A DNA stretch of 44,534 bases from a virus: positions 1 through 44,534 of IMG/VR virus record IMGVR_UViG_3300034358_000002, one strand, 5' to 3'. Below the pieces are notes generated by a model. That model saw nothing but the letters and a program-made list of their open reading frames with translations. It did no database searches and was not told the origin of the DNA. Shown here in pieces: positions 1 through 44,534 of this stretch (position 1 is its first letter; each line of letters starts with the position of its first letter). The position numbers and the translations under genes are program-made.

Positions 1-127
1 GTAAACACCAAGAATGCCGCGCATGTGAATGCTCAGCGGGCTGCGGATCTCGGAGCTGCTGTGGACGTATCGGGTCGGGAAGTAGGTCCGAGCTACGGGC
101 CATCCGCAGCGGCTGGTATGCTGGGGC
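1..127. repeat. Terminal direct repeat of the contig, left copy
   Basis: The first 127 bases are identical to the last 127 (44408-44534). The repeat lies inside one continuous reading frame. It is better explained as the overlap left when a circular assembly graph is cut open than as a biological terminal repeat, because phages of this type carry their terminal repeats outside genes. Confidence 0.95.
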
Positions 128-906
128 AGGGTAACATTGATCTGAATGCACGGCCCACTGTGAACAACGCAGACGGCAGCATCAGCACTGTGCGCTCCAT
201 CTCCGCCAACTTCGATGGCAAGGAGACGTTGATCCCAACTGTCAGCGATGATGGGCGGATCATGTCCAACGAGGAGGCGATCCAGAGCTACCTGAAGACA
301 GGTAAACATCTGGGCCAGTTCGACACCGTGGAGCACGCTAATGCGTACGCAGAGCAGCTCCATAACGCACAGGCCAAGCAGTACACCAAGCAGACTATCG
401 TGATTGACGGCGGTAACGCCAGCGGTATGCAGCGTCGTGGTGTGTACGACTGGCGCCGCGATATGCTGAGCCACGAAGGCTACAGGGATGAAGTGTACCA
501 AGACAATGGTAAGATGGCGGTAGGTGTGGGCCACCAGATTTCTGGTGTGCCTGAGGGTACCAAGATCCCCAAGGCCCAGCTTGAACGCTGGTTCGCTGAG
601 GATACCGACAATGCCCTGATCGCTGGTAATAAGATCGCCAGGGAGCTGGGCGTCACCAACCCGCAGGCCATCCTCGGTCTGTCTGGTGCCGCATTCCAAC
701 TGGGCGAGAGTGGCTTGGGTGAGTTCAAGGCCACCAAGAAGGCCATCCAGAATAAGGACTGGGAAGGCTTCAAGCAACAGGTCCGCGATAGCAAGTGGGC
801 ACAACAGACACCTGGGCGCGTCAAGGCGTTCCTCGGGTACATGGAACCCCACTTCACTGACATGAGCACCGGTCCCGACTGGTACACTGAAGCAACTGCG
901 AGGTAA
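1..906 (+). CDS. Internal virion protein with lysozyme domain, C-terminal part
   Basis: This is the last 301 residues of a 1004-residue protein whose first 703 codons lie at 42299-44407. The frame is continuous across the contig join. It corresponds to the phiKMV gp36-type virion-associated muralysin, which is ejected into the cell envelope and opens peptidoglycan during DNA entry. The end of the protein is a T4-lysozyme-like (GH24) domain: E862, eight residues, D871, then GKMAVGVGH. In T4 lysozyme a Thr lies six residues after the Asp; here that position is V877. Before it is a segment (about residues 745-825, with LIPTV and [12 protein letters not shown]) of a kind often found next to such domains. 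The stop is followed after two bases by the start of the next ejection protein, so the pair is co-translated. Confidence 0.85.
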
Positions 907-908
907 TA

Positions 909-3900
909 ATGAGCGAAGCCAAGGGCAAACTGACCCCTAAGAACCCGATGACCCCTGCCGAAGTACTGAGTGCCCAACAGGCTGTCAGTCCGGTACCCGG
1001 CGTTGGGTTGGACGCTGTAGGTGGTCAAGTGGTACAGGGGCAGGTTGCCGCTGGCCAAGCGATCAACGCAGAGAACCTGAAAGGCATTAAGGCAGATCAG
1101 GATCGGGCGGCGCTGGACACGGCGTCGGCGCTCCTGCAAGAGAGCACGGTAGCTGGTCGGGCAATCGACGAGGCTAGCCAATGGTTCGGTCCTGAGGAGA
1201 CTCAGATCGACCGTGGATTCAATGCCGGCACGTACGCCACCAAGCGGTTCGCCGAGTTGGGTATTCCCCAGAACGACCGGTACACCAAGGCCATTGCACA
1301 GGCCGCAAACGCACAGGATGCCGAAGAGATCATCGGGCGCATCCAGAAGCACGAGGAGAACCAACGTGTCGTTGCAGATAACCCGTACTGGAACTTTGGA
1401 GCAACGATGGTGGACCCTGTTGCTCTCGGCATGGATGCTCTTACTTTTGGCACCGGGCGAGCACTGCGACTTGGCCGTGGCGCTATGGCTGCTGTCGGAG
1501 GTGCCGGTCAATTCGCTTACGTCGGCGCGATGGATGCGGTTGACATGGAAGTGGATACCAGTACCTACATTCTGGCGGGTGCTCTGGGCGCAGGTATCGG
1601 CGCTGTGTTCGGCAAGGGTGCGGGCCAGTTAGGCCGCGATGCAGTAAATCCCCCTCCGGCTATCCGGCCTGAGCCTATCCCATCCCCTACACCAACCCCG
1701 GCATCAGCGGTGCCAGGCGCTCCGCCAGTCACAGCTCCAGTGGTTAATCCGCTGGTAGATCAGGGCCTGCGGGTAGACACCCTGATGAAACAGGAAGTCA
1801 TGCCTACCGTGCCGCGTGCAGCCAGTGCCTTCGAGGATGCCCTTGTACAGGGTGCCCATGGCAAGCCAGCTAGTGAGGCCGCCTCCTTCCTTGCAGCCCA
1901 TGCCGACGTCCCAGTGGGTCTGCGGGCTGTAGCTGCCAAGGTTGGCGACACGCTGCGCCGTATGGAAGCTGCCGGGCAGACTACCCTGTTCCGCGTTGTG
2001 CGCGGTGGCGATCAAGCACCTGAGAGCTTCCTGCGCCCAGGTACCGCCGGCATCCACGTCACCCACGAAGGTGAGTCCCTTGTGGCTGTGCGTGGTGCCT
2101 CAGCGCCGGGTCGCGATGGTGCCAACCCTGTGACAGCCCTGCATGAGCTGACGCATGCTGCCACGGTACAGATTATGCGTGCGGCTTCTGCTGCGCCGGA
2201 GACTGTCTCAGCCGCCTCCCGCGAGGCTCTAGCCACCCTGCAAAACGTACTGGCCACCGTCAAGGTACACGTAGCAGGTCTGTCGGACAACGGCCTGACT
2301 GACTTCGAGCGGGCCATTAAGGCAGGACACAACAACTCCACAGCGAACACAATGGAGCTGGTATCGTGGGGCTTGACTGATACACGCATGCAGGCCCTGT
2401 TGAACAAGATCAAGATGCCTAGCGCACCGGGCACCCTGTGGGATTCATTCGTGGGTCAGGTTCGTCAACTGCTCGGCATGTCCGTAGCCGATGACACTGC
2501 GCTGAGTCAAGTGCTCCAATCTGCTGGGCGCCTCATGGATGAAGCACCGGGCTACACTGCCCAGACACAATCGTGGGCAGCCAAAGGCGCCCCGTCGATC
2601 CAGCCTAGCTGGGAGTCCATCGGGCAATCGGCGAAGCAGAAGGCAGCGGCATCCCTCGGGTTCGTGAACCGGTTCTTCTCTGAGGCTGACTTGCTCGGCG
2701 TCACTGGGGAAGCACGTACACTCATGGGCCGCTTGATCGACGACCCTGTACGTCGGGAGGGCTTCAGCACTAACGACAACGCGGCGAGCTACCTGCGCCG
2801 CTACCGTAACGAGTTCGACGGGTACGTGAAGCAGTACGATGACATGGTTGCCGACGTAATGGCCCAGCGTGGGGTGTCGTGGAAGGACCGGGCACTGGCC
2901 ACCAAGCGTGGTGTGGCTGCACGGGATACCTTGAATGACGAGGTATCCGCAGAGCTGCTCCGCCGTAACCGCTCATGGACCGCCGACGGCTACGTTAGCG
3001 ACGTGGCTGATCTGGACCCGAACGTGGCCCGCCTCGCTGATATGAGCGACAACGTACACGGCCTCATGGGCCAGCGTGCCCGCGAGGCAGGTGTGCGGGG
3101 CTTCGAGGACTTCGTGCCAGTACCGGGTTACTTCCACCGCTCATGGAACTACAGCAAGATGCTGGACCTCGACAACGTGCAGCCGGGCTTAGCGGCCAGC
3201 ACCATCGGTGAGGCTGTGTTCCGTGGACTCAAGACTCTGGAGCATGACGACGCCCTGACCATCGGTAAGGCTATCGTGCAGCGCGCCAAGGATCGGGCAT
3301 CAGGCATCCGCTCGGAGTTCATGGGCGCACTGGGCGTGGCTGATACCACCTTCATCCGCGAGTCGCTGGAAGCAGCGAATGTCAGCCAAGTGAAGATCGA
3401 CAGCATCATGGGCAAGATCGAGCAGAAGGCATCCGACCAAGGTACTGTGAAGTACGGGAAGGGCCGCTTGAATCTGGATATGGATGTCGAGGTGAATGTG
3501 GGTGGCAGCGTGTACCGTGTAGCCGACCTGATCGACCGTGACTTGGATCGTCTGATGGAGAACTACGCCGGCAGTATCTCGGGCCGATCTGCACTGGCTC
3601 GGGCAGGTATGCCGGGTGACAGCGAGATCGAGGCATTCATCCGGGAGTACACCAAGTCGGTGAACCACCTCGGGGTAGCGAAGACGGAAGAACTCACCGG
3701 CCAACTGCGCGGCGTGTTCGGCGACTTCACCGGCAACGTTCCGAAGGAGCACCAGCTTGGCCCATTGGCTCAGCGTGCCTCCGGCCTGACTGCTGCGACC
3801 ATGCTGGGATTCTCTGGTGTGTACCAGTTGGCAGAGATCGCCACCATCATGCACCGTCAAGGTGTGGCGGCTACCTTCGGGGAGATGATGAAGTCCTTCA

Positions 3901-4883
3901 ACGGGGGTATGGGTAAGATCCTTGGCATGGCTAATCGGGACCCGGATCTCGCTGCTGAGATGCAAACTGTGCTTGGTCTGGACCTTGCTCGGGATGTGCG
4001 TATGAAGCCGTGGAAGCGGCAGTTCGATACCTTCCTGAACTCCAGCGACACCACGTTTGACCGGCTGCTGCATAGCGGTAAGCAGGCCACCCCAATCTTG
4101 AACGGTATGAAATTCGTGCATGGCATCCAGTCCCGCATGAACGCCAACCTCACGCTGAACAAGATCGCCCGTGCATCCGCCGGGGACGCTGACGCCCTGG
4201 CTGTACTCAAAGCGTACGGCAAGGACGTGGACTGGGACCCCCTGTTACAGCGGGTTCGCGGTTATGTCTCCCTTAACGGAAAGAACGCTACAAGCATGAA
4301 CTGGGGCGTATGGCCAAAAGCCGACGTGGATACCGTGATGAACACGGCCCTGCGACTGATGGATGACTCGTTGCTGTTCGGACGGGTAGGCCAGAACGCA
4401 GGTTATGCCCGCTCCCCAGTTGGCCAGATCCTCGGCCAGTTCCGCAGCTTCGTAGCATTCGCACATAACAAGTTACTCCGAGGCACCTACGAGAACAACG
4501 GGGTGCTCGGCGTGGCGTCACTGCTCGCCTTGCAGTATCCGCTTACCGCCATGATGATGGGTGTGAAGTCTGCCATCAACGGCAAGCTCGATCTATCAGA
4601 GAAGGGCTTGAAGAAGATGGCCATTGACGGCATCAGCTACACCGCAGGTCTGGGCTTCACTGCCGATATGTGGGGCGTGGTATCTGGGAACGGGCGCATG
4701 AGTGCGCCTGTCTTCGGGCTGGTCGAGAACACCGGGGAAGTATTCCGGGGTGTTAAGGGCCTGCTTGGGGATGATCCTAAGGGCGCCGTGGGTGACATCA
4801 CTAGCGGAGCAGCAGGCTTGGTTCCGTTCGTGAACGTGTTCCCAGCATCTAAGCTGCTTCTGGAAAGCATTAAAGGAGAGTAA
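909..4883 (+). CDS. Large internal virion (ejection) protein with zincin-like domain
   Basis: This 1324-residue protein sits where T7 gp16 / phiKMV gp37 sit, between the lysozyme-bearing virion protein and the tail fibre. Such proteins form the inner core and are ejected to make the trans-envelope DNA channel. The visible parts are a hydrophobic Gly/Ala stretch (about 185-240), a Pro-rich linker (about 248-280) and an HELTH motif at residues 412-416. ELVSWGLTD follows, with E483 as a possible third zinc ligand. A long hydrophilic helical body (about 560-1300) resembles gp16-type proteins. The HExxH plus downstream Glu pattern is that of zincin metallopeptidase domains of large polyvalent phage proteins; T7 gp16 instead has a transglycosylase at its N-terminus. 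Position and size make the role secure, but peptidase activity is inference. The gene also contains a copy of the TATGTCTCCC element at 4259-4280. Confidence 0.85.
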   Translation: MSEAKGKLTPKNPMTPAEVLSAQQAVSPVPGVGLDAVGGQVVQGQVAAGQAINAENLKGIKADQDRAALDTASALLQESTVAGRAIDEASQWFGPEETQIDRGFNAGTYATKRFAELGIPQNDRYTKAIAQAANAQDAEEIIGRIQKHEENQRVVADNPYWNFGATMVDPVALGMDALTFGTGRALRLGRGAMAAVGGAGQFAYVGAMDAVDMEVDTSTYILAGALGAGIGAVFGKGAGQLGRDAVNPPPAIRPEPIPSPTPTPASAVPGAPPVTAPVVNPLVDQGLRVDTLMKQEVMPTVPRAASAFEDALVQGAHGKPASEAASFLAAHADVPVGLRAVAAKVGDTLRRMEAAGQTTLFRVVRGGDQAPESFLRPGTAGIHVTHEGESLVAVRGASAPGRDGANPVTALHELTHAATVQIMRAASAAPETVSAASREALATLQNVLATVKVHVAGLSDNGLTDFERAIKAGHNNSTANTMELVSWGLTDTRMQALLNKIKMPSAPGTLWDSFVGQVRQLLGMSVADDTALSQVLQSAGRLMDEAPGYTAQTQSWAAKGAPSIQPSWESIGQSAKQKAAASLGFVNRFFSEADLLGVTGEARTLMGRLIDDPVRREGFSTNDNAASYLRRYRNEFDGYVKQYDDMVADVMAQRGVSWKDRALATKRGVAARDTLNDEVSAELLRRNRSWTADGYVSDVADLDPNVARLADMSDNVHGLMGQRAREAGVRGFEDFVPVPGYFHRSWNYSKMLDLDNVQPGLAASTIGEAVFRGLKTLEHDDALTIGKAIVQRAKDRASGIRSEFMGALGVADTTFIRESLEAANVSQVKIDSIMGKIEQKASDQGTVKYGKGRLNLDMDVEVNVGGSVYRVADLIDRDLDRLMENYAGSISGRSALARAGMPGDSEIEAFIREYTKSVNHLGVAKTEELTGQLRGVFGDFTGNVPKEHQLGPLAQRASGLTAATMLGFSGVYQLAEIATIMHRQGVAATFGEMMKSFNGGMGKILGMANRDPDLAAEMQTVLGLDLARDVRMKPWKRQFDTFLNSSDTTFDRLLHSGKQATPILNGMKFVHGIQSRMNANLTLNKIARASAGDADALAVLKAYGKDVDWDPLLQRVRGYVSLNGKNATSMNWGVWPKADVDTVMNTALRLMDDSLLFGRVGQNAGYARSPVGQILGQFRSFVAFAHNKLLRGTYENNGVLGVASLLALQYPLTAMMMGVKSAINGKLDLSEKGLKKMAIDGISYTAGLGFTADMWGVVSGNGRMSAPVFGLVENTGEVFRGVKGLLGDDPKGAVGDITSGAAGLVPFVNVFPASKLLLESIKGE
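4259..4280 (+). promoter_or_regulatory. TATGTCTCCCTTAACGGA element, copy 1 (inside ejection-protein gene)
   Basis: These 22 bases are identical to the copy at 33973-33994 although this one is inside a coding gene. The GGAGA arm that lets other copies fold into a hairpin is broken here (GGAAA), so the conserved feature is the sequence and not the stem. It lies about 600 bases upstream of the tail-fibre start. It is a candidate phage RNA polymerase promoter. Confidence 0.45.
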
Positions 4884-30618: not shown

Positions 30619-31158
30619 ATGCGAGAGTACAAAGTAGTCGAATGCCCTGGCAACAAAAAGCATGCAGGTAAAGTGGGTACCCTCAGCGAGCTTGGCGTTT
30701 TCGTGGACCACAGCAACTCCTGCCGGTTTGAGGGTCTATACAACATTGGCCCCGGCCTGTACAAGAACGCCAACCTCACTATGGTGGCTGAGATTGTCGA
30801 GCCGACGGGTTGCTCTGGTGTTGAGGCTATACAGCCCGGACAGGCCTTTAAGGAAGACGACGGCAAGCCAAACTGGTACCTGCTGATGTCCGCCAAGGGC
30901 TGCGCCTCCGCGCTGGCCGGCGTTGTACGAGTTCTGTCCTTCGCTGTTCGTGCGAAGGACAAGGGTGGCAAGGGCTACATTGAGCATAGCTGGCGCGAAG
31001 TCCCTAATGGCAAGGAGCGCTACGAGGCCGCGCTGTACCGGCACCTAAGCAAGGTCCATCTCGGGGAGTTGGTGGATGATGAGTCCGGGGAATCCCACTG
31101 GGCACATATCGCCACGAACGCCTTGTTCTTGGCTGAGCTGCACAAGTCCCGTGAATAG
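30619..31158 (+). CDS. dATP/dGTP diphosphohydrolase-domain protein
   Basis: 179 residues. The second half follows the pattern of the dATP/dGTP diphosphohydrolase N-terminal family: KPNWYLLM (about 83), ALAGVVRVLSFAVRAK, then YEAALYRHLSKVHLGE, DDESGESHWAHIATNALFLAEL. This MazG-like helical fold has conserved Glu/Asp/His that hold metals. It may adjust the nucleotide pool. Some phages with this family make diaminopurine DNA, but no PurZ-like gene is seen here. The first half (1-75) is an unassigned strand domain. Confidence 0.72.
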   Translation: MREYKVVECPGNKKHAGKVGTLSELGVFVDHSNSCRFEGLYNIGPGLYKNANLTMVAEIVEPTGCSGVEAIQPGQAFKEDDGKPNWYLLMSAKGCASALAGVVRVLSFAVRAKDKGGKGYIEHSWREVPNGKERYEAALYRHLSKVHLGELVDDESGESHWAHIATNALFLAELHKSRE

Positions 31159-34126: not shown

Positions 34127-34372
34127 ATGGCCAGATTAGGGCGCAAAAGTAACCCTCCCGAATATGTCTCCCTTAACGGAGGAACAGCCAAGAGTTCGGC
34201 TCACCCTGTTTACTTCACCCCGGAACAGGTCAGATGGCTTGAGGAGACATTCCCCGAGCCTCAGATCACCCCGGACACTACGATGGAGACAATCCAGTAC
34301 GTAGCCGGCCAGCGCAAGCTGATCCACGCCATGCGAGCCCGTGTTCGCAATATGACCACGGTGCAGCTATGA
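34127..34372 (+). CDS. Small late protein, 81 residues
   Basis: First gene of the structural unit. Its ribosome site GGAGA is part of repeat copy 4, and its codons 13-18 (YVSLNG) are repeat copy 5. The product has a basic start (MARLGRKSNPP) and helices (TPEQVRWLEETFPEP, TIQYVAGQRKLIHAMRARV). It overlaps the next gene by four bases. Function unknown; possibly head assembly. Confidence 0.7.
   Translation: MARLGRKSNPPEYVSLNGGTAKSSAHPVYFTPEQVRWLEETFPEPQITPDTTMETIQYVAGQRKLIHAMRARVRNMTTVQL
34163..34180 (+). promoter_or_regulatory. TATGTCTCCCTTAACGGA element, copy 5 (inside the 34127 gene)
   Basis: Exact 18-base core inside coding sequence, read as YVSLNG in the same frame as copy 1. GGAGG in place of GGAGA shortens the possible stem. 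Confidence 0.45.
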
Positions 34373-34821
34373 GCATTCGAGTCGAGAACACCATCCGGTA
34401 CGCTGGGCAGTCCGCCCGTATCGCTGTACTCGCACTTCCCAGCATCCGCGAATTCAAGGAGCTGCGGCAGAACAAGGATATTCGTGAGGACGTACACCGC
34501 ATCGCTTCCAGCCTCGCGGAGTTCGACCGCACCGAGATCGTGATCTACGACGGCAACGCTGTTGTAGGTGGCGCTACCATCGTTCTTGACGATGACCAAC
34601 ACGTCGGCCCATGCTTGAGCCTGCAATGGCAGTACGTGCTCCCCGCGTACCGCCGCCTGCACTTAGGTCGCCACTTCGTCCGCGAGCTGCTACGGCAAGC
34701 TGGCTGGGCCGGTATCCGTAATGTGTCGTACTCCCACCGCACCGGTGAGGGGCAGTACACAATCACGTACCGAGAGGTAGAGCATGGGCAAGAAAGTAAA
34801 AAAGATTATCGGCAAGGCTAA
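34369..34821 (+). CDS. GNAT acetyltransferase-like protein of the structural unit
   Basis: 150 residues. IVIYDGNAVVGGATIVLDDD then SLQWQYVLPAYRRLHLGRHF (about 82-101) match strand 4 and the acetyl-CoA loop of GNAT folds. It sits directly upstream of the small head gene and portal. A similar small acetyltransferase-like gene is found at this place in several podophages. Whether it is packaged or acts on host proteins is unknown. It overlaps both neighbours and holds CTGTACTCGCA site 8. Confidence 0.65.
   Translation: MSIRVENTIRYAGQSARIAVLALPSIREFKELRQNKDIREDVHRIASSLAEFDRTEIVIYDGNAVVGGATIVLDDDQHVGPCLSLQWQYVLPAYRRLHLGRHFVRELLRQAGWAGIRNVSYSHRTGEGQYTITYREVEHGQESKKDYRQG
34424..34434 (+). promoter_or_regulatory. 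CTGTACTCGCA site 8
   Basis: Exact copy, inside the GNAT-like gene (read there as V-L-A), 349 bases before the next start. It is the last copy before the structural genes. Confidence 0.5.
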
Positions 34822-39306: not shown

Positions 39307-41756
39307 GCTACAAGGAGTCCGCACACAAGAACTTGCTGATGGGCGTATCCCAGCAGGTTCCACAGGACAGACTCCCCGGCCAGTTGTCCGCCCAGTTGAA
39401 CATGATCTCTGATCCTGTGACTGGCCTCCGGCGGCGTCCGGGGACGGAGTACATCTCACTGATGCGCTCCATCGACTTGGGTACCTCCCCACGGCCACGG
39501 GTGTACCACACTGACATCAACAGCCGCTCCGTGGTCATCATGGTGTTCGCCCACTCCGGGGACCTGTACGTCTTCGACGACACGACCGGCGAGTTGCTTC
39601 AGTCGTATCTGGCGCGGCCTTATCTGGTCACGGCCCTCCCGAACTACCTGCACTTTGTAACGATGGGTGACGAGGTGTTCATCGCCAACACCGGGGTGAA
39701 GCCCGCTAAGTCTGCCGGCCTGAATACGAAGAATCCAGATCAGTACGGGTACTTCTACGTCGTGTCCGGGCAGTACAACAAGCTGTTCACCTTGAACATC
39801 CGTAACCGGGCGACCGGGCTGGAGTACAGCGCCTCGTACCTGACGCCAATCGGTTCTGGTGTGAACGACCCGGCCCTGACCGCAGCGCATGCAATCGCAT
39901 GGCAGTTGTACGGGAAGATCTACGGACGTACCGCAGTGGTAGGTGACGTGTCCCGCCCAGCGGTGGCAGCAGATCCAGCCCTTGCTCCAGTAGCAGCCGC
40001 TACCGTGACATCCGGTTTATCGGATGGCTACGTCGCCCTGCAATTGGCTCCAGGCTGGGAGCTGACGATCACCACGAACGCCGGCAACCTGTACATGCGG
40101 ACCAGTAACGACATGACGGTACGGGCCTCAGATGAGCTACCGGCTACCTTACCAACCAACGCACCGTACCCAGCAACCTCCGGCGGCACCGCCTTCATGA
40201 ACGGTGTGATCGTGGCTGCGGGCACCAGCTCTAACCTGACGTACTACCGCTGGGATGCTGCCGGCGGGCGTTGGATTGAGGATGCGGACTACGGCGCAGA
40301 TACAGGCATGTTCAACATGCCGGAGCGATTGAAATGGGACTCAGGTGGATGGGCTTACGGGGCACCGGCATACGTCCGCCGCCCTTCCGGCGATGCGGAA
40401 TCGAACCCGGATTTCAACTTCCTCAAGGAGGTGGGTATCACGGGTATGACGACATTCCAAGGACGGTTGGTGCTGTTGTCGAACGAGTACGCCTGTATGA
40501 GCGCGAGCAACGATCCACTTCGGTGGTACAAGCGCTCGGCTGCCGCCCTGAGTGACGACGACCCGGTAGAGGTAGCGGCACAGGGTACACTAACGGCGCC
40601 CTACGTTTACGGCATCACGTACAACAAGGACCTCTTGTTGTTCTCTCGACGGTACCAAGCGGTGATTCCCGGTGGCGGTGTAATCACGCCGCGCACCGCC
40701 TCCTTGTCCGTCACCACGACGTACGAGGTGGACATCGACGCCCTGCCTGTGGCGGCGGGCCGCTCCCTGTACTTTGCCGCACCTCGAAGCCTCGGCTTTG
40801 TGGGTATGCACGAGATGTCCCCGTCTCCAAGTACCGAGAGCCACTACGTCGCCGACGACATCACCAGCCACATCCCCTCGTACATCATCGGCCCCACGGC
40901 GTTCATCGCCGCCGCCAGTACGTCCGGGTACCTGGTGATGGGTACCGAGTCAGGTGATCGGAACGACCTGACAGTCTTCCAGTACATCTGGGCAGGTGGT
41001 GAGAAGGCACAGGCCGCATGGCACCGCTGGGTGTTCAACCCGGAGGTGGTGGCCGCGTACTTCACTGGCGATACCTTGATGATGGTCGTGTATCAGAACG
41101 CAGCCCTCCACCTCCTGAAGCTAAACCTCCGGGCCCTGGCAGGTTCCGCTGGTCTACGACAACCCCGGTACGACATGCAATCCCTCGTAGTCGTCGCGGA
41201 GACGGGCGTGCTCACAATGCCCACGGCGTACTACGACACGATCCGACATGATCCCCGTGCGTACCTGTTGAACCCTATGACGGGGCAGCATCTGGAACGC
41301 AGCGTGTTCGACTACATCACCGACGACGGGTTGGGGTTCACCCATCTGGGATGCCCTGAGGCGATTGTGGGGCAGACGTACGTAGTCGGCCACGGCTACC
41401 TATCGGAGATCGAACCATCCCCGCCAGTGATCCGCGACTTTAACGAGGTGCCCATCACGACCACCCGCGCAACCCTGCGTGGCTACCGTGTGGCCTTCAC
41501 TGACTCTGGGGAGTTCGAGTACAAAGTGGGTGATGCTATTCGACCGGGTAACTGGTTGGATACGACGCCGTTGCGGCTGTTCAGTCAGCAGCTTGGTGCC
41601 GGTCAGCCCTTTGTGGCGAGCGCGGTAGTGGCACTGCCGGCCCGCGTGGATCTGCACACATCCTCGCTGGCTCTCCGCACTTCGGGTCCGTACGACATGA
41701 ACATCAACTCAATCGAGTACGGGTACAAACACAACCTACGCTACAGGAGAACCTAA
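39303..41756 (+). CDS. Tail tubular protein B (nozzle)
   Basis: 817 residues, close to T7 gp12 (794). It starts YKESAHKNLLMGVSQQVPQDRLPGQ with QLNMISDPVTGLRRRPGTEY, typical of the family. Mostly beta, it forms the six-bladed nozzle of the short tail. Its stop overlaps the next start (TAATG). Confidence 0.93.
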   Translation: MSYKESAHKNLLMGVSQQVPQDRLPGQLSAQLNMISDPVTGLRRRPGTEYISLMRSIDLGTSPRPRVYHTDINSRSVVIMVFAHSGDLYVFDDTTGELLQSYLARPYLVTALPNYLHFVTMGDEVFIANTGVKPAKSAGLNTKNPDQYGYFYVVSGQYNKLFTLNIRNRATGLEYSASYLTPIGSGVNDPALTAAHAIAWQLYGKIYGRTAVVGDVSRPAVAADPALAPVAAATVTSGLSDGYVALQLAPGWELTITTNAGNLYMRTSNDMTVRASDELPATLPTNAPYPATSGGTAFMNGVIVAAGTSSNLTYYRWDAAGGRWIEDADYGADTGMFNMPERLKWDSGGWAYGAPAYVRRPSGDAESNPDFNFLKEVGITGMTTFQGRLVLLSNEYACMSASNDPLRWYKRSAAALSDDDPVEVAAQGTLTAPYVYGITYNKDLLLFSRRYQAVIPGGGVITPRTASLSVTTTYEVDIDALPVAAGRSLYFAAPRSLGFVGMHEMSPSPSTESHYVADDITSHIPSYIIGPTAFIAAASTSGYLVMGTESGDRNDLTVFQYIWAGGEKAQAAWHRWVFNPEVVAAYFTGDTLMMVVYQNAALHLLKLNLRALAGSAGLRQPRYDMQSLVVVAETGVLTMPTAYYDTIRHDPRAYLLNPMTGQHLERSVFDYITDDGLGFTHLGCPEAIVGQTYVVGHGYLSEIEPSPPVIRDFNEVPITTTRATLRGYRVAFTDSGEFEYKVGDAIRPGNWLDTTPLRLFSQQLGAGQPFVASAVVALPARVDLHTSSLALRTSGPYDMNINSIEYGYKHNLRYRRT

Positions 41757-42289
41757 TGTTCTGGATTCCACTGCTTATCAGTGGAGCGATGTCTGCCGGT
41801 AAGGCTGCCCTCGACAACAAGGCAAAGGTGCGCCAAGCGAAGCTGGAGAACAAGGCCCGTGAGAAGACGGACCTGCGGAACTTGGCGGAGGCTGCCCAAG
41901 AAGTTGGGAGCCTCGGCCTCCTCGCCGCCCAGTACCGCCAGCAAGCCACCCAGGCCACCACCTCCGCCCAGCGTGAGGTTGGTAAAGCTCGCGGTACCGC
42001 CGAAGCGCAAGCTGGCGCAGCGGGTATCAAGGGTGCCAGCGTCGATGCAGTGTTCCAAGACCTCGACCGTGAATTCAGCGATGCCGAAGTCGCGATTGAC
42101 CGTAACTTGGAGAACCAGCAGTACAACCTCGGGGAGCAACTCCGAGCGCTCCAGTTCCAAACCGCTAACGGCCTACTCGGCCAGCGGAACCCACAAGCCA
42201 ACCTGCGTAACCCCCTATTGGAGGGGGCTGCAACAATCGGCATGAACTACGCTAGTTCGTACTTCCAGTACGGCGCGTCCACCAGTTAA
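41756..42289 (+). CDS. Internal virion protein, gp14-type
   Basis: 177 residues. A hydrophobic start (FWIPLLISGAMSAGKAAL) is followed by Ala/Gln-rich helices (QYRQQATQATTSAQREVGKA). This matches T7 gp14, which inserts in the outer membrane as part of the ejected channel. It is ten bases before the next ejection gene. Confidence 0.85.
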   Translation: MFWIPLLISGAMSAGKAALDNKAKVRQAKLENKAREKTDLRNLAEAAQEVGSLGLLAAQYRQQATQATTSAQREVGKARGTAEAQAGAAGIKGASVDAVFQDLDREFSDAEVAIDRNLENQQYNLGEQLRALQFQTANGLLGQRNPQANLRNPLLEGAATIGMNYASSYFQYGASTS

Positions 42290-42298
42290 GGAGGCCCC

Positions 42299-44534
42299 AT
42301 GGCTGAACGATCATCACAGGAACTAGGGCTACGGCTACCCGCCACCCAACTGCAAGCGTCCCCGAGTGGTGGTCGGGCTACCGTAAAGGATTACGACGTG
42401 GAGTCCCGCGACGGCAGTGCTACTCAGGTGCTGTCTGGGATCTTCTCCGCCGTAGGTGGTATCGCCGACAAGAAGTTCCAGTCGAACGTGCAGGAGCAGA
42501 TCCTGAGCGGTCAGCGCCAACGTATGGCTGGGGTCGCCGAGGAGTCGCTGGATTCCAACCCATTCACCGCCCCCTTTGTGCGTAACGGGTACAAGCAGCA
42601 GGACTACCGGATCAAGCAGGCCGACTTTAGCCTGAGTATGTCGCAGTTGATCGACAACGAGGGTCGCAAGATGACCCCGGCTGAGTTCCAGAAGAAGCTC
42701 AGCACCGAGGCGCAGGGCGTTGTGAGTTCGCTCGACGGCCTTCCGCCTGAGGCGCACATGCAGGCGCTGATGCAGCAAACCAAGGCCGAAGAGACTTTGG
42801 TGACGAAGCAGACGCAGGCCCACTCTGCCTGGACGGTTGAGCAGGGCACCAAGCCATTCCTCGCTCAGGGTAATAGCATTCTTGCCAAGCTCACTCAGGC
42901 GTCGTCCCGAGCCGACGATCTGACGTACCGTGCTGGTACCGAAGAGGCCGCGCTGTACTATATGAACCTGCTGAACACCCCAGCCATCCCGGATGCAGCC
43001 AAGCCGGGTGTAGCGAAGAACTTCCTGCTCGGCGCGCTGGACTTGAATCAGCGCAAGGTGTATGAGGATCTCCGCGATAATGGTGCGCTGGACCCACTGG
43101 GCTTTGATGACCGCCGGGAGCTGAACTCAGCGTATGAGCGCAGCCTTGCCAGCACCCGTGGCCAAGAGAGCATGGTGGATCTGGAGCGTGACGCCACCTT
43201 CCAGACTGGTGTAGCCTCCGGTGCCGTAGGTCTGGACGAGGCATCAGCCTACGCCAAGGATCGAGTAGACCGGAAGCTGTGGGGCGCCGAGCAGGCCATC
43301 AACTTCGTGCAGGGTGCCCAGAAGGGCGTGGCCAACCGGCAGCTCATGTCGAACATGGTGACATCGCTGGAAGCAGGAGATGTGAATAGCCTGAACCGGC
43401 TGGGCTTCTCCACTGACGAGGCGCTGACCAAGTACGACCAGATCCTCGCAGCCAACGGCTCTACCTTGAGCCAACGTCTGACCGCCACCACCAAGCTGGG
43501 CCTGCAACTCGGCACCTTCCCCTCGACCTACGGGGCGGCGGTGGGCGCATCTGTGCGGGCTGTGCTGGCTAGTGGTGAGAAGGGCGAGGTCAACCCGGAG
43601 ATGATCCAGACGCTGAACGCCATCACGGAGCAGGTTGCCCAAGCGGAGTCCACCAACCCTGCCGCCGGCAATACACTGCTGCAAGGCGTACCAGAGAATG
43701 AGCGAGGCGCGATCTCGTACATGCTCCAGCAGTCCAAGCTCGGCATCCCGCCAGGTCAGGCCCTGAAGGAATACGGCGCACAGGATCTGGCGGCTACCCA
43801 GCAGGACGATGCCCAGAAGTTCATCAACAGTCAGTCGTTCCAGAAGTCGTTGGCCACGAAGGTGGATAACACGTTCCTGTCCGGCGCCTTTGGCCGTGTT
43901 GGTAACTTCCTTACCGGCAATGCGAACCTGAGTGACAACACCGCCGTATTGAGCATGTACACCCGCGCCGTGCAATCGGAAGCCGTGCAGCTCAGTGGGG
44001 ATCGCCGCAATGCGGGCCTACTGACCTCGGCGGTCGGCCACGAGTCCCTCCTGAACCTCGCAGCGGCCAACGTGTCGGAGCGGACCATTCAGGTGGGTAA
44101 GGCGGGCGTCCTGTTCGACCGCGAGCGCACTCCGCTGATTCTCCCCCGAGGTACCGGCATTGATACGGTATTCGGCTCCAAGGATAAGCAAGGGATTGCG
44201 CAGGAGCTGGCTGAGCGGTACCCGCCTGATGTTATGGGTACCATGGGCACTGCCGGCGGCTCTGGTGGTGCAGGTGGTTGGATCGGGGAGAAGTCCACGA
44301 TTGCCTTCGAGTACACGAACCAGAACGGCCTGTATCGTATTCAGTACGATCAGAACGGTCAGGAACTGGACCGCATCAAGATCGACCCTAAGGCCATCGG
44401 CAATACCGTAAACACCAAGAATGCCGCGCATGTGAATGCTCAGCGGGCTGCGGATCTCGGAGCTGCTGTGGACGTATCGGGTCGGGAAGTAGGTCCGAGC
44501 TACGGGCCATCCGCAGCGGCTGGTATGCTGGGGC
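42299..44534 (+). CDS. Internal virion protein with lysozyme domain, N-terminal part
   Basis: An open frame from an ATG with AGGAGG upstream runs to the window end without a stop. Codon 704 equals window base 1, so it joins the fragment 1-906 to give 1004 residues. The front is gp15-like (VLSGIFSAVGGIADKKFQSN, then ESLDSNPFTAPFVRNGY). A long helical body follows. It is predicted to line the periplasmic channel during DNA ejection and carries the muralytic domain at its far end. Confidence 0.88.
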   Translation, partial: MAERSSQELGLRLPATQLQASPSGGRATVKDYDVESRDGSATQVLSGIFSAVGGIADKKFQSNVQEQILSGQRQRMAGVAEESLDSNPFTAPFVRNGYKQQDYRIKQADFSLSMSQLIDNEGRKMTPAEFQKKLSTEAQGVVSSLDGLPPEAHMQALMQQTKAEETLVTKQTQAHSAWTVEQGTKPFLAQGNSILAKLTQASSRADDLTYRAGTEEAALYYMNLLNTPAIPDAAKPGVAKNFLLGALDLNQRKVYEDLRDNGALDPLGFDDRRELNSAYERSLASTRGQESMVDLERDATFQTGVASGAVGLDEASAYAKDRVDRKLWGAEQAINFVQGAQKGVANRQLMSNMVTSLEAGDVNSLNRLGFSTDEALTKYDQILAANGSTLSQRLTATTKLGLQLGTFPSTYGAAVGASVRAVLASGEKGEVNPEMIQTLNAITEQVAQAESTNPAAGNTLLQGVPENERGAISYMLQQSKLGIPPGQALKEYGAQDLAATQQDDAQKFINSQSFQKSLATKVDNTFLSGAFGRVGNFLTGNANLSDNTAVLSMYTRAVQSEAVQLSGDRRNAGLLTSAVGHESLLNLAAANVSERTIQVGKAGVLFDRERTPLILPRGTGIDTVFGSKDKQGIAQELAERYPPDVMGTMGTAGGSGGAGGWIGEKSTIAFEYTNQNGLYRIQYDQNGQELDRIKIDPKAIGNTVNTKNAAHVNAQRAADLGAAVDVSGREVGPSYGPSAAAGMLG
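44408..44534. repeat. Terminal direct repeat of the contig, right copy
   Basis: Identical to bases 1-127. Features here duplicate those at the left end. Confidence 0.95.

What the first reader, a model, noticed from the sequence alone, without database searches (positions are those of the whole stretch)
2142..2357. Zincin-type HExxH motif in the largest ejection protein
HELTH (412-416) and a downstream ELVSWGLTD (E483) match the zinc ligands of metallopeptidase domains in polyvalent phage proteins. T7 gp16 carries a transglycosylase in its place. A protease injected with the first DNA could process the ejection channel or cut host defence proteins.
Basis: partly seen in the sequence, partly recalled or inferred. 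Interest (0 to 1): 0.6.

Follow-up and report, generated by a model that had tools for sequence, protein, structure and literature searches.

The report
Protease cargo in phage ejection protein
A protein that this bacterial virus injects to build its DNA-entry channel also carries what looks like an intact zinc-dependent protein-cutting domain, in a place where related viruses carry other enzymes or nothing, so it is probably a passenger weapon and not the cell-wall-cutting part that databases call it.

Summary
The window is a phiKMV-like podovirus. Its largest ejection protein (909-4883, 1324 aa) has HELTH at 412-416 and Glu483. HExxH plus the downstream Glu are invariant in 64 of 64 domain sequences (23 of 23 clusters at 80% identity); 53 of these were collected through another part of the protein and detected with the motif masked. 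An AlphaFold2 model of residues 290-560 (pLDDT 91) resembles anthrax-lethal-factor/PPEP-type zincins, at modest scores. Profile and structure tie the family to the HExxH domain of N4 virion RNA polymerase (E 2e-8; Z 10.7 from a distant relative's model) and to the PhiM1 ejection protein (Z 16.4), whose domain was published as 'endolysin/exotransglycosidase-like'. I find no sequence sign of a lysozyme or transglycosylase there; a lysozyme domain sits in the neighbouring ejection protein. The position is exchangeable: empty in LKA1 and pphageT21, an ART-like domain in an LKA1-like contig, GNAT plus zincin in some Klebsiella-type phages; one LKA1-like contig has a zincin at a second site. Best reading: a co-injected metallopeptidase cargo, probably active, substrate unknown. 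'In place of T7's transglycosylase' is not supported.

The parts
909..4883 (+). Tetrameric ejection protein (T7 gp16 / phiKMV gp37-like), 1324 aa
   Evidence: ORF; phrog_342 E 6.1e-212; 74.8% identity to phiNV3 internal core protein over its length; PDB 9sfn_G phmmer 1706 bits
909..1628 (+). N-terminal segment, residues 1-240, conserved in relatives with and without the zincin
   Evidence: 29% identity to pphageT21 and 25% to LKA1 over this stretch
1776..2588 (+). Zincin-type metallopeptidase domain as modelled, residues 290-560
   Evidence: AlphaFold2 pLDDT 91.1, pTM 0.90; VIA-align and profile matches
2142..2156 (+). HELTH, residues 412-416: two predicted zinc ligands and the general-base Glu413
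   Evidence: invariant H, E, H 64 of 64
2334..2336 (+). Asn476, seven residues before the third ligand, where most relatives have Tyr
   Evidence: Tyr 50, Asn 13, Gly 1 of 64
2355..2357 (+). Glu483, predicted third zinc ligand
   Evidence: invariant 64 of 64
3306..4688 (+). Hub region (residues 800-1260), used as the anchor for the unbiased homologue set
   Evidence: alignment A3, scan
1..906 (+). C-terminal part of the neighbouring (octameric) ejection protein, with a phage lysozyme (GH24) domain at about 469-807
   Evidence: PF00959 E 3.3e-7, 31.1 bits, above its cut-off of 22.3; phrog_2083 'internal virion lysozyme motif'
42299..44534 (+). N-terminal part of the same octameric ejection protein; the gene runs across the window ends
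   Evidence: 127-base end overlap
41756..42289 (+). Smallest ejection protein (gp14 / phiKMV gp35-like)
   Evidence: phrog_805 E 2.7e-36

Best explanation
Residues ~290-560 of the largest ejection protein are a zincin-type metallopeptidase domain with an intact HExxH...E site. It is homologous to the C1 domain of N4 virion RNA polymerase and is carried as inserted cargo. It leaves the capsid with the ejection proteins ahead of or with the first DNA, refolds in the envelope or cytoplasm, binds zinc, and cuts a protein of the host (less likely of the ejection machine itself). It is an accessory effector and not the peptidoglycan hydrolase. Shown here: sequence, homology, predicted fold, invariant site, and natural presence, absence and exchange at the insertion site. 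Inferred: zinc binding, proteolysis, site of action, host substrate.
For: H/E/H/E invariant 64 of 64, although six of the twelve proteins in A1 share only 16-19% identity with the window's domain. Domain detected with motif masked, motif kept 53 of 53. 12 of 12 A1 members match phrog_2206 virion RNA polymerase, best E 1.5e-17. A1 profile matches N4 vRNAP 2124-2330 at E 2.1e-8 with HExxH and third Glu in register. Model 1 (window): pLDDT 91; of the 50 entries shown by VIA-align, ranks 1-44 are the lethal factor / edema factor / Certhrax / PPEP-Zmp1 fold group, PhiM1 TEP or N4 vRNAP, Z 7.9 to 5.3, then 4.6. Model 2 (distant relative L160): PhiM1 TEP Z 16.4, N4 vRNAP Z 10.7. Tyr seven residues before the third Glu in 50 of 64, the spacing of catalytic Tyr190 and zinc ligand Glu197 in PPEP-3 (PMC12828418, passages). 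Cargo behaviour: LKA1 and pphageT21 lack it cleanly; ART-like or GNAT domains at the same site; zincin at another site in L118. N4 vRNAP is packaged unprocessed (Iyer et al. 2017, passage), which argues against a role before ejection.
Against: No experiment shows zinc or proteolysis, here or in the N4 and PhiM1 passages read. Foldseek E for model 1 is 0.066 at best, none at or below 0.001; all its VIA Z values are under 8, and model 2 gives lethal factor only Z 5.1 over a background of 4.7. Some rows of the lethal-factor fold group are, as I recall, non-catalytic receptor-binding domains, so the fold alone does not prove an enzyme. The window's clade has Asn where most of the family and PPEPs have the catalytic Tyr. 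No Pfam zincin model matches the window protein. That the substrate is a host protein is inference.
Confidence: 0.7

Rival explanations
1. Self-processing: the domain cuts the ejection proteins (itself or neighbours) during maturation or after ejection, to release parts or take the channel apart.
For: Iyer et al. proposed autoprocessing for many polyvalent MPTases and cite P1 DdrB processing. A proline-rich linker lies on the domain's N-terminal side (window residues ~245-275).
Against: LKA1, pphageT21, aldrigsur, Bolek and RHEph02 have no such domain in the protein or, by profile search, anywhere in the record (0 of 5 records; 2 of 2 domain-bearing controls found), so ejection machines of this type work without it. 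N4 vRNAP is packaged unprocessed. ART and GNAT at the same site fit cargo better than a channel function.
Confidence: 0.2
2. Peptidoglycan hydrolase: an endolysin/exotransglycosidase-like domain, as published for the PhiM1 protein (Asp268-Asp528), or a metallo-endopeptidase that cuts peptidoglycan cross-links.
For: PMC11440229 assigns it from BLASTP and DALI (passage); many records are named 'internal virion protein with endolysin domain' or 'peptidoglycan lytic exotransglycosylase'.
Against: No Pfam lysozyme or SLT match in the window protein or the 12 A1 domains. phrog_342, which lends the 'endolysin' name, is matched only from profile position 197 on, while SB5, which does have an SLT, matches from position 7. 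A lysozyme domain is in the neighbouring protein. The same domain is in N4 vRNAP, a polymerase that works inside the cell. A cross-link-cutting zincin is not excluded.
Confidence: 0.06
3. A dead zincin fold kept for structure, for example for the outer surface round which DNA spools.
For: PhiM1 authors see density spooling in a groove lined by this domain (passages). Asn instead of Tyr at -7 in this clade.
Against: All four catalytic positions invariant in 64 of 64 against a very diverged background; whole domain dispensable in nature.
Confidence: 0.08
4. A HExxH enzyme that is not a peptidase (such as the alpha-ketoglutarate HExxH enzymes cited beside zincins in the N4 preprint).
For: N4 authors mention both; an HExxH oxygenase domain, 8s5f, appears at Z 2.9 for model 2.
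Against: That Z is inside the background; Glu third ligand and Tyr at -7 follow the PPEP pattern.
Confidence: 0.05
5. It is the missing protease that cuts the host RNA polymerase alpha linker in phiKMV and LUZ19 infections.
For: phiKMV and LUZ19 cut alpha, LKA1 does not; 19 host protease knockouts did not stop the cleavage (PMC7552054, passages). LUZ19 and LKD16 carry the domain, LKA1 does not.
Against: The same paper reports alpha cleavage after expression of Rac alone in uninfected cells, so this domain cannot be required; LKA1's Rac is also diverged.
Confidence: 0.02

Closest known systems
C1 domain (2124-2375) of phage N4 virion RNA polymerase gp50, the zincin MPTase of Iyer et al. 2017
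   Same: Profile E 2.1e-8 with HExxH and third Glu aligned; structure Z 10.7 for model 2, 7.2 for the window model; both in a packaged, injected protein
   Different: In N4 the carrier is an RNA polymerase; here it is the T7 gp16-like channel protein; N4 has neither Tyr nor Asn at -7 in the alignment shown
PhiM1 tetrameric ejection protein gp48, residues 268-528 (8vb2)
   Same: Same protein family, same domain: profile E 9.6e-47 at 273-514, model-2 Z 16.4 at 280-516
   Different: Published as endolysin/exotransglycosidase-like
Anthrax lethal factor C-terminal domain and PPEP/Zmp1 metalloproteases (M34-like)
   Same: HExxH, third Glu, overall fold (Z 7.9 to 5.3 for the window model); Tyr at -7 in most relatives
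   Different: Window clade has Asn at -7; no sequence match; those are secreted enzymes with known targets
T7 gp16
   Same: Largest ejection protein, same role, hub region, gene order
   Different: T7 has an N-terminal transglycosylase (PMC11440229 passages) and, as recalled, no zincin

Membership tests
T7 gp16-like tetrameric ejection protein | Full-length profile match and position after the gp14/gp15-like genes | tested here: met
   phrog_342 E 6.1e-212; neighbours phrog_805 and phrog_2083
Zincin metallopeptidase superfamily | HExxH on a helix plus a downstream third ligand (Glu) | tested here: met
   Invariant 64 of 64; HExxH lies in the helix at model residues 118-139, Glu in the helix at 192-201
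Zincin metallopeptidase superfamily | Zincin fold | tested here: met
   Model pLDDT 91; lethal factor/PPEP group fills ranks 1-44 together with N4 and PhiM1, but Z under 8 and Foldseek E not below 0.066; model 2 to N4 C1 Z 10.7
Zincin metallopeptidase superfamily | Zinc bound, peptide bond cleaved | not testable with these tools
   Needs protein
Polyvalent-protein MPTase as in N4 vRNAP C1 | Homology to the N4 domain | tested here: met
Polyvalent-protein MPTase as in N4 vRNAP C1 | Match of the window protein to a curated zincin model | tested here: not met
   No Pfam zincin family for P0001 or its domain at E up to 1; among the other 11 A1 members a few weak zincin-family hits, best Tox-MPTase4 E 5.3e-4. 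Not a feature that defines the family, so it lowers no claim of homology to N4 C1
M34-like (lethal factor / PPEP) | Catalytic Tyr seven residues before the third Glu | tested here: not met
   Asn476 in the window; Tyr in 50 of 64 relatives. Hence 'works like', not filed as a member
M34-like (lethal factor / PPEP) | Fold closest to that family | tested here: inconclusive
   Best rows for the window model but Z under 8; Z 5.1 for model 2
Peptidoglycan lytic transglycosylase / endolysin (database and PhiM1 label) | Lysozyme or SLT sequence match in residues 290-560 | tested here: not met
   None in Pfam for P0001 or 12 A1 domains; only vRNAP and unnamed PHROGs
Peptidoglycan lytic transglycosylase / endolysin (database and PhiM1 label) | Lysozyme-like fold | tested here: inconclusive
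   Fold lists cannot exclude a family

The most novel reading that the evidence does not exclude
The large ejection protein of phiKMV-like and related podoviruses has a cargo bay: a fixed position after the ~240-residue N-terminal segment into which injected effector enzymes (zincin protease, ADP-ribosyltransferase, GNAT acetyltransferase, combinations, or none) are swapped while the channel-forming parts stay the same, so the DNA-entry channel doubles as an effector delivery system acting before any phage gene is expressed.
Probability: 0.5. Interest if true: 0.75.

Novelty: new variant of a known kind. Interest (0 to 1): 0.55.

Why it matters
Zincin domains in injected 'polyvalent' proteins are known, with N4 vRNAP as a founding case. 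What seems unreported in the papers I could search is that the channel-building ejection protein of a large group of podoviruses, including many Klebsiella, Vibrio and Pseudomonas phages, carries one. One published structure paper and many database records carry a peptidoglycan-hydrolase label in its place. The natural experiment is already in hand: close relatives with the domain, without it, or with other enzymes at the same spot. That makes the old question of what injected virion enzymes do in the first minutes of infection directly testable with a single catalytic mutant.

Tried and rejected
Transglycosylase/endolysin reading: no sequence support in the domain. 'Replaces T7's transglycosylase': SB5 has both. 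RpoA protease idea: attractive match of phiKMV/LUZ19 versus LKA1, rejected as a requirement because Rac alone causes the cleavage. Defence-system link: only JetA at E 0.0087 in PADLOC, residues 578-649, taken as chance. NCBIfam gave only TonB proline-rich matches.

The first alignment-based scan used a pattern containing HExxH, so its 80 loci were not counted for motif conservation; they served for the model alignment A2 (46 locus rows plus the window), and only lists them. A scan of bacterial genomes gave 2 weak relatives from a narrow pattern, not pursued. The ART insert of L115 found no relative in the phage collection and only its own contig and L136 in viral contigs, so no fold was attempted. 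VIA-align gives ranges and not residue pairs, so superposition of the active site on lethal factor or PPEP was not checked. No lysozyme or transglycosylase fold is in the rows shown, which proves nothing. Rows dropped before counts: 7 of 79 hub loci without N-terminus. In the 19-row alignment RHEph02 aligns poorly in this region and its insert is unassigned; L004 is a contig-end fragment whose wrong frame was taken there.

Literature searched: no title or abstract start in the listings, and no passage I read, describes a protease in a phiKMV/T7-type ejection protein. Most subscription papers are not held and no supplementary file was read, so the lists of Iyer et al. may already contain these proteins. 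What I saw of papers: passages only of PMC12633501, PMC11440229, PMC8954989, PMC5512222, PMC11784390, PMC8472413, PMC12828418, PMC3841139; abstract, outline and passages of PMC7552054; searches inside PMC10925440 and PMC10386132 found none of the terms asked; all other papers only in listings.

Full report
What the window is. The window is a virus record of 44,534 bases. Its closest named relative is Pseudomonas phage phiNV3 (Krylovirinae, Kirikabuvirus). The ends overlap by 127 bases, and the gene of the middle-sized ejection protein runs across them, so the record is probably a complete genome opened at an arbitrary place. The ORF at 909-4883 is the largest ejection protein: phrog_342 E 6.1e-212, 74.8% identical to the phiNV3 protein over its whole length, and related along its length to the solved internal virion protein 9sfn_G of 1337 residues. 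phiKMV gp37 has 1337 aa in the table of PMC8954989; that 9sfn is phiKMV is my inference.

The observation. HELTH is residues 412-416 and the downstream glutamate is residue 483, at the coordinates given. HExxH is expected 0.011 times in a protein of this composition.

Conservation without circularity. I aligned the domain from 12 proteins. Six of them share only 16-19% identity with the window, yet H, E, H, A, T of the motif, the later Glu, one Leu and one Gly are invariant. To avoid finding only what has the motif, I searched the viral contigs with the C-terminal hub. Of 79 loci, 72 had the N-terminus. With the motif and third-Glu columns masked in the HMM, 53 of 72 carry the domain and 53 of 53 have HExxH. 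18 have neither, and one (L134) has HELVH but a weak masked score, 4.5 bits. At 80% identity these are 34 clusters: 23 with the domain, 10 without, 1 like L134. In 53 loci plus 11 phage proteins, all four catalytic positions are invariant (64 of 64). The spacing from first His to Glu varies from 47 to 73 residues.

A further catalytic hint, and a flaw. Seven residues before the third Glu there is Tyr in 50 of 64, Asn in 13 and Gly in 1. In PPEP-3 the oxyanion Tyr190 and zinc ligand Glu197 have the same spacing (PMC12828418, passages). The window's clade is among those with Asn, so the family looks like an active PPEP/lethal-factor-type site while this protein's own version departs from it at one position.

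Fold. The AlphaFold2 model of residues 290-560, from 47 sequences, has pLDDT 91.1 and pTM 0.90. Foldseek gives lethal factor first, but only at E 0.066, with none at or below 0.001. VIA-align gives lethal factor Z 7.9 (4.4 A over 168), PhiM1 ejection protein Z 7.4 (2.7 A over 85), N4 vRNAP Z 7.2 (4.7 A over 178), PPEP/Zmp1 Z 5.3-6.0. Ranks 1-44 of the 50 shown belong to that fold group or to the two phage proteins, and the next row is Z 4.6. All are below Z 8, which by the tool's own note can be a common arrangement. A second model, from the distant half of the family (L160; pLDDT 85.3), gives PhiM1 Z 16.4 (1.7 A over 161, chain residues 280-516), N4 vRNAP Z 10.7 (3.7 A over 194, residues 2124-2364), then lethal factor at only Z 5.1 against a background of 4.7. 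So the link to N4 C1 and PhiM1 is firm and the link to M34-type enzymes is suggestive.

Homology to N4. All 12 A1 members match phrog_2206, virion RNA polymerase (best E 1.5e-17). The A1 profile finds N4 vRNAP 2124-2330 at E 2.1e-8, with HExxH and the later Glu in register. Iyer et al. 2017 described that region as a zincin-like metallopeptidase, the most widespread type in polyvalent proteins, and noted that N4 vRNAP is packaged unprocessed (PMC5512222, passages). The N4 structure preprint notes the HExxH of C1; the passages I read assign no activity to it (PMC12633501).

A label to correct. The PhiM1 paper calls residues 268-528 of the same protein endolysin/exotransglycosidase-like, from BLASTP and DALI (PMC11440229, passage). 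The A1 profile covers 273-514 there at E 9.6e-47. I find no lysozyme or SLT match in the window protein or the 12 A1 domains. phrog_342, which carries the words 'endolysin domain', is matched by the window from profile position 197 but by SB5, which does have an SLT (E 1.9e-5, above its cut-off), from position 7. A lysozyme domain lies in the neighbouring protein of the window (PF00959 E 3.3e-7). In public phage records the domain of JKP2 is matched in 327 records and the window's in 108 (tblastn; overlap of the two sets not tested). Of the 40 and 25 rows listed, none names a peptidase; several say endolysin domain or exotransglycosylase.

Cargo behaviour. LKA1 (1003 aa) and pphageT21 (1010 aa) align with the window before residue 240 (25% and 29%) and after 600 (45% and 51%), with almost nothing between. 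A profile search of the whole records of pphageT21, LKA1, aldrigsur, RHEph02 and Bolek finds no copy (0 of 5; both domain-bearing controls found). L115 is 88% and 91% identical to LKA1 on the two sides of an insert of about 190 residues that matches ART-PolyVal at E 3.7e-6, 28.2 bits, below the curated 31.2. L147 is 70% and 86% identical to JKP2 on the two sides of an insert of about 190 residues with a GNAT domain above the curated cut-off (E 7.4e-7), followed by a zincin. Seven phage records cover at least 80% of that GNAT query: SFN6B, myPSH1235 and KpV48 twice each, and ZH5. L118 is LKA1-like with the first site empty and a zincin inserted near LKA1 residue 590, which looks like an independent gain. 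L124 has, by eye, HEYGVH (the HExxxH form that Iyer et al. mention) and an ART-like stretch with only a weak Pfam score (E 0.19). I surveyed 34 clusters for slot size but scanned only 10 N-terminal parts for other domains, so the frequency of each cargo is not known.

How it most likely works. Ejection proteins of this type leave the capsid and form a conduit across the envelope (PMC11440229, passages). The domain would travel with its carrier, refold, take up zinc, and cut a protein substrate. Because the same domain rides on a polymerase that works inside the cell in N4, and because relatives put ART or GNAT at the same place, the likeliest target is a host protein reachable from the inner-membrane side. 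Shown: homology, invariant site, fold, exchange. Inferred: metal, catalysis, compartment, target.

A tempting link that fails. phiKMV and LUZ19 infections cut the host RNA polymerase alpha subunit and LKA1 does not; the protease is unknown (PMC7552054, passages). The domain's presence in LUZ19 and LKD16 and absence in LKA1 matches. But Rac alone, expressed without phage, causes the cleavage, so this domain cannot be required. The window also has a GNAT gene downstream of its RNA polymerase, as Rac is placed (34369-34821).

Verdict. The domain kind is known; its vehicle and exchange pattern look new in what I could search. Activity is untested.

Noticed in passing
window 1-906 and 42299-44534: The octameric ejection protein gene runs across the window ends, which overlap by 127 bases. 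By hand arithmetic it is about 1004 aa, roughly 118 aa longer than phiNV3's (886 aa from the coordinates).
   Followed up: partly
window 34369-34821: GNAT acetyltransferase (PF00583 E 7.3e-7) downstream of the phage RNA polymerase, the place of the phiKMV Rac gene that triggers host RNA polymerase cleavage.
   Followed up: partly
L147 4108-4329 (residues 330-403), with L148 and L149 of similar length: GNAT domain inserted before the zincin in ejection proteins of some Klebsiella, Shigella and Escherichia phages.
   Followed up: partly
L115 1809-2306 (residues 257-422), L136: ART-PolyVal-like domain at the insertion site in an otherwise LKA1-like ejection protein.
   Followed up: partly
L118 residues 663-891: Zincin inserted at a second site, inside the hub, in an LKA1-like protein whose first site is empty.
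   Followed up: partly
L124 residues ~390-560: HEYGVH (HExxxH form) followed by an ART-like stretch at the same site; its PHROG match there is to a family named endolysin.
   Followed up: no
L028-L098: Relatives of the domain in IMG/VR lie mostly in open reading frames of about 1,900-2,800 aa; of four scanned, each matches phrog_9854 or phrog_2206 or both.
   Followed up: no
window 30619-31158: dATP/dGTP diphosphohydrolase N-terminal domain (PF18909 E 3.2e-21), a family I recall from phages with modified adenine.
   Followed up: no
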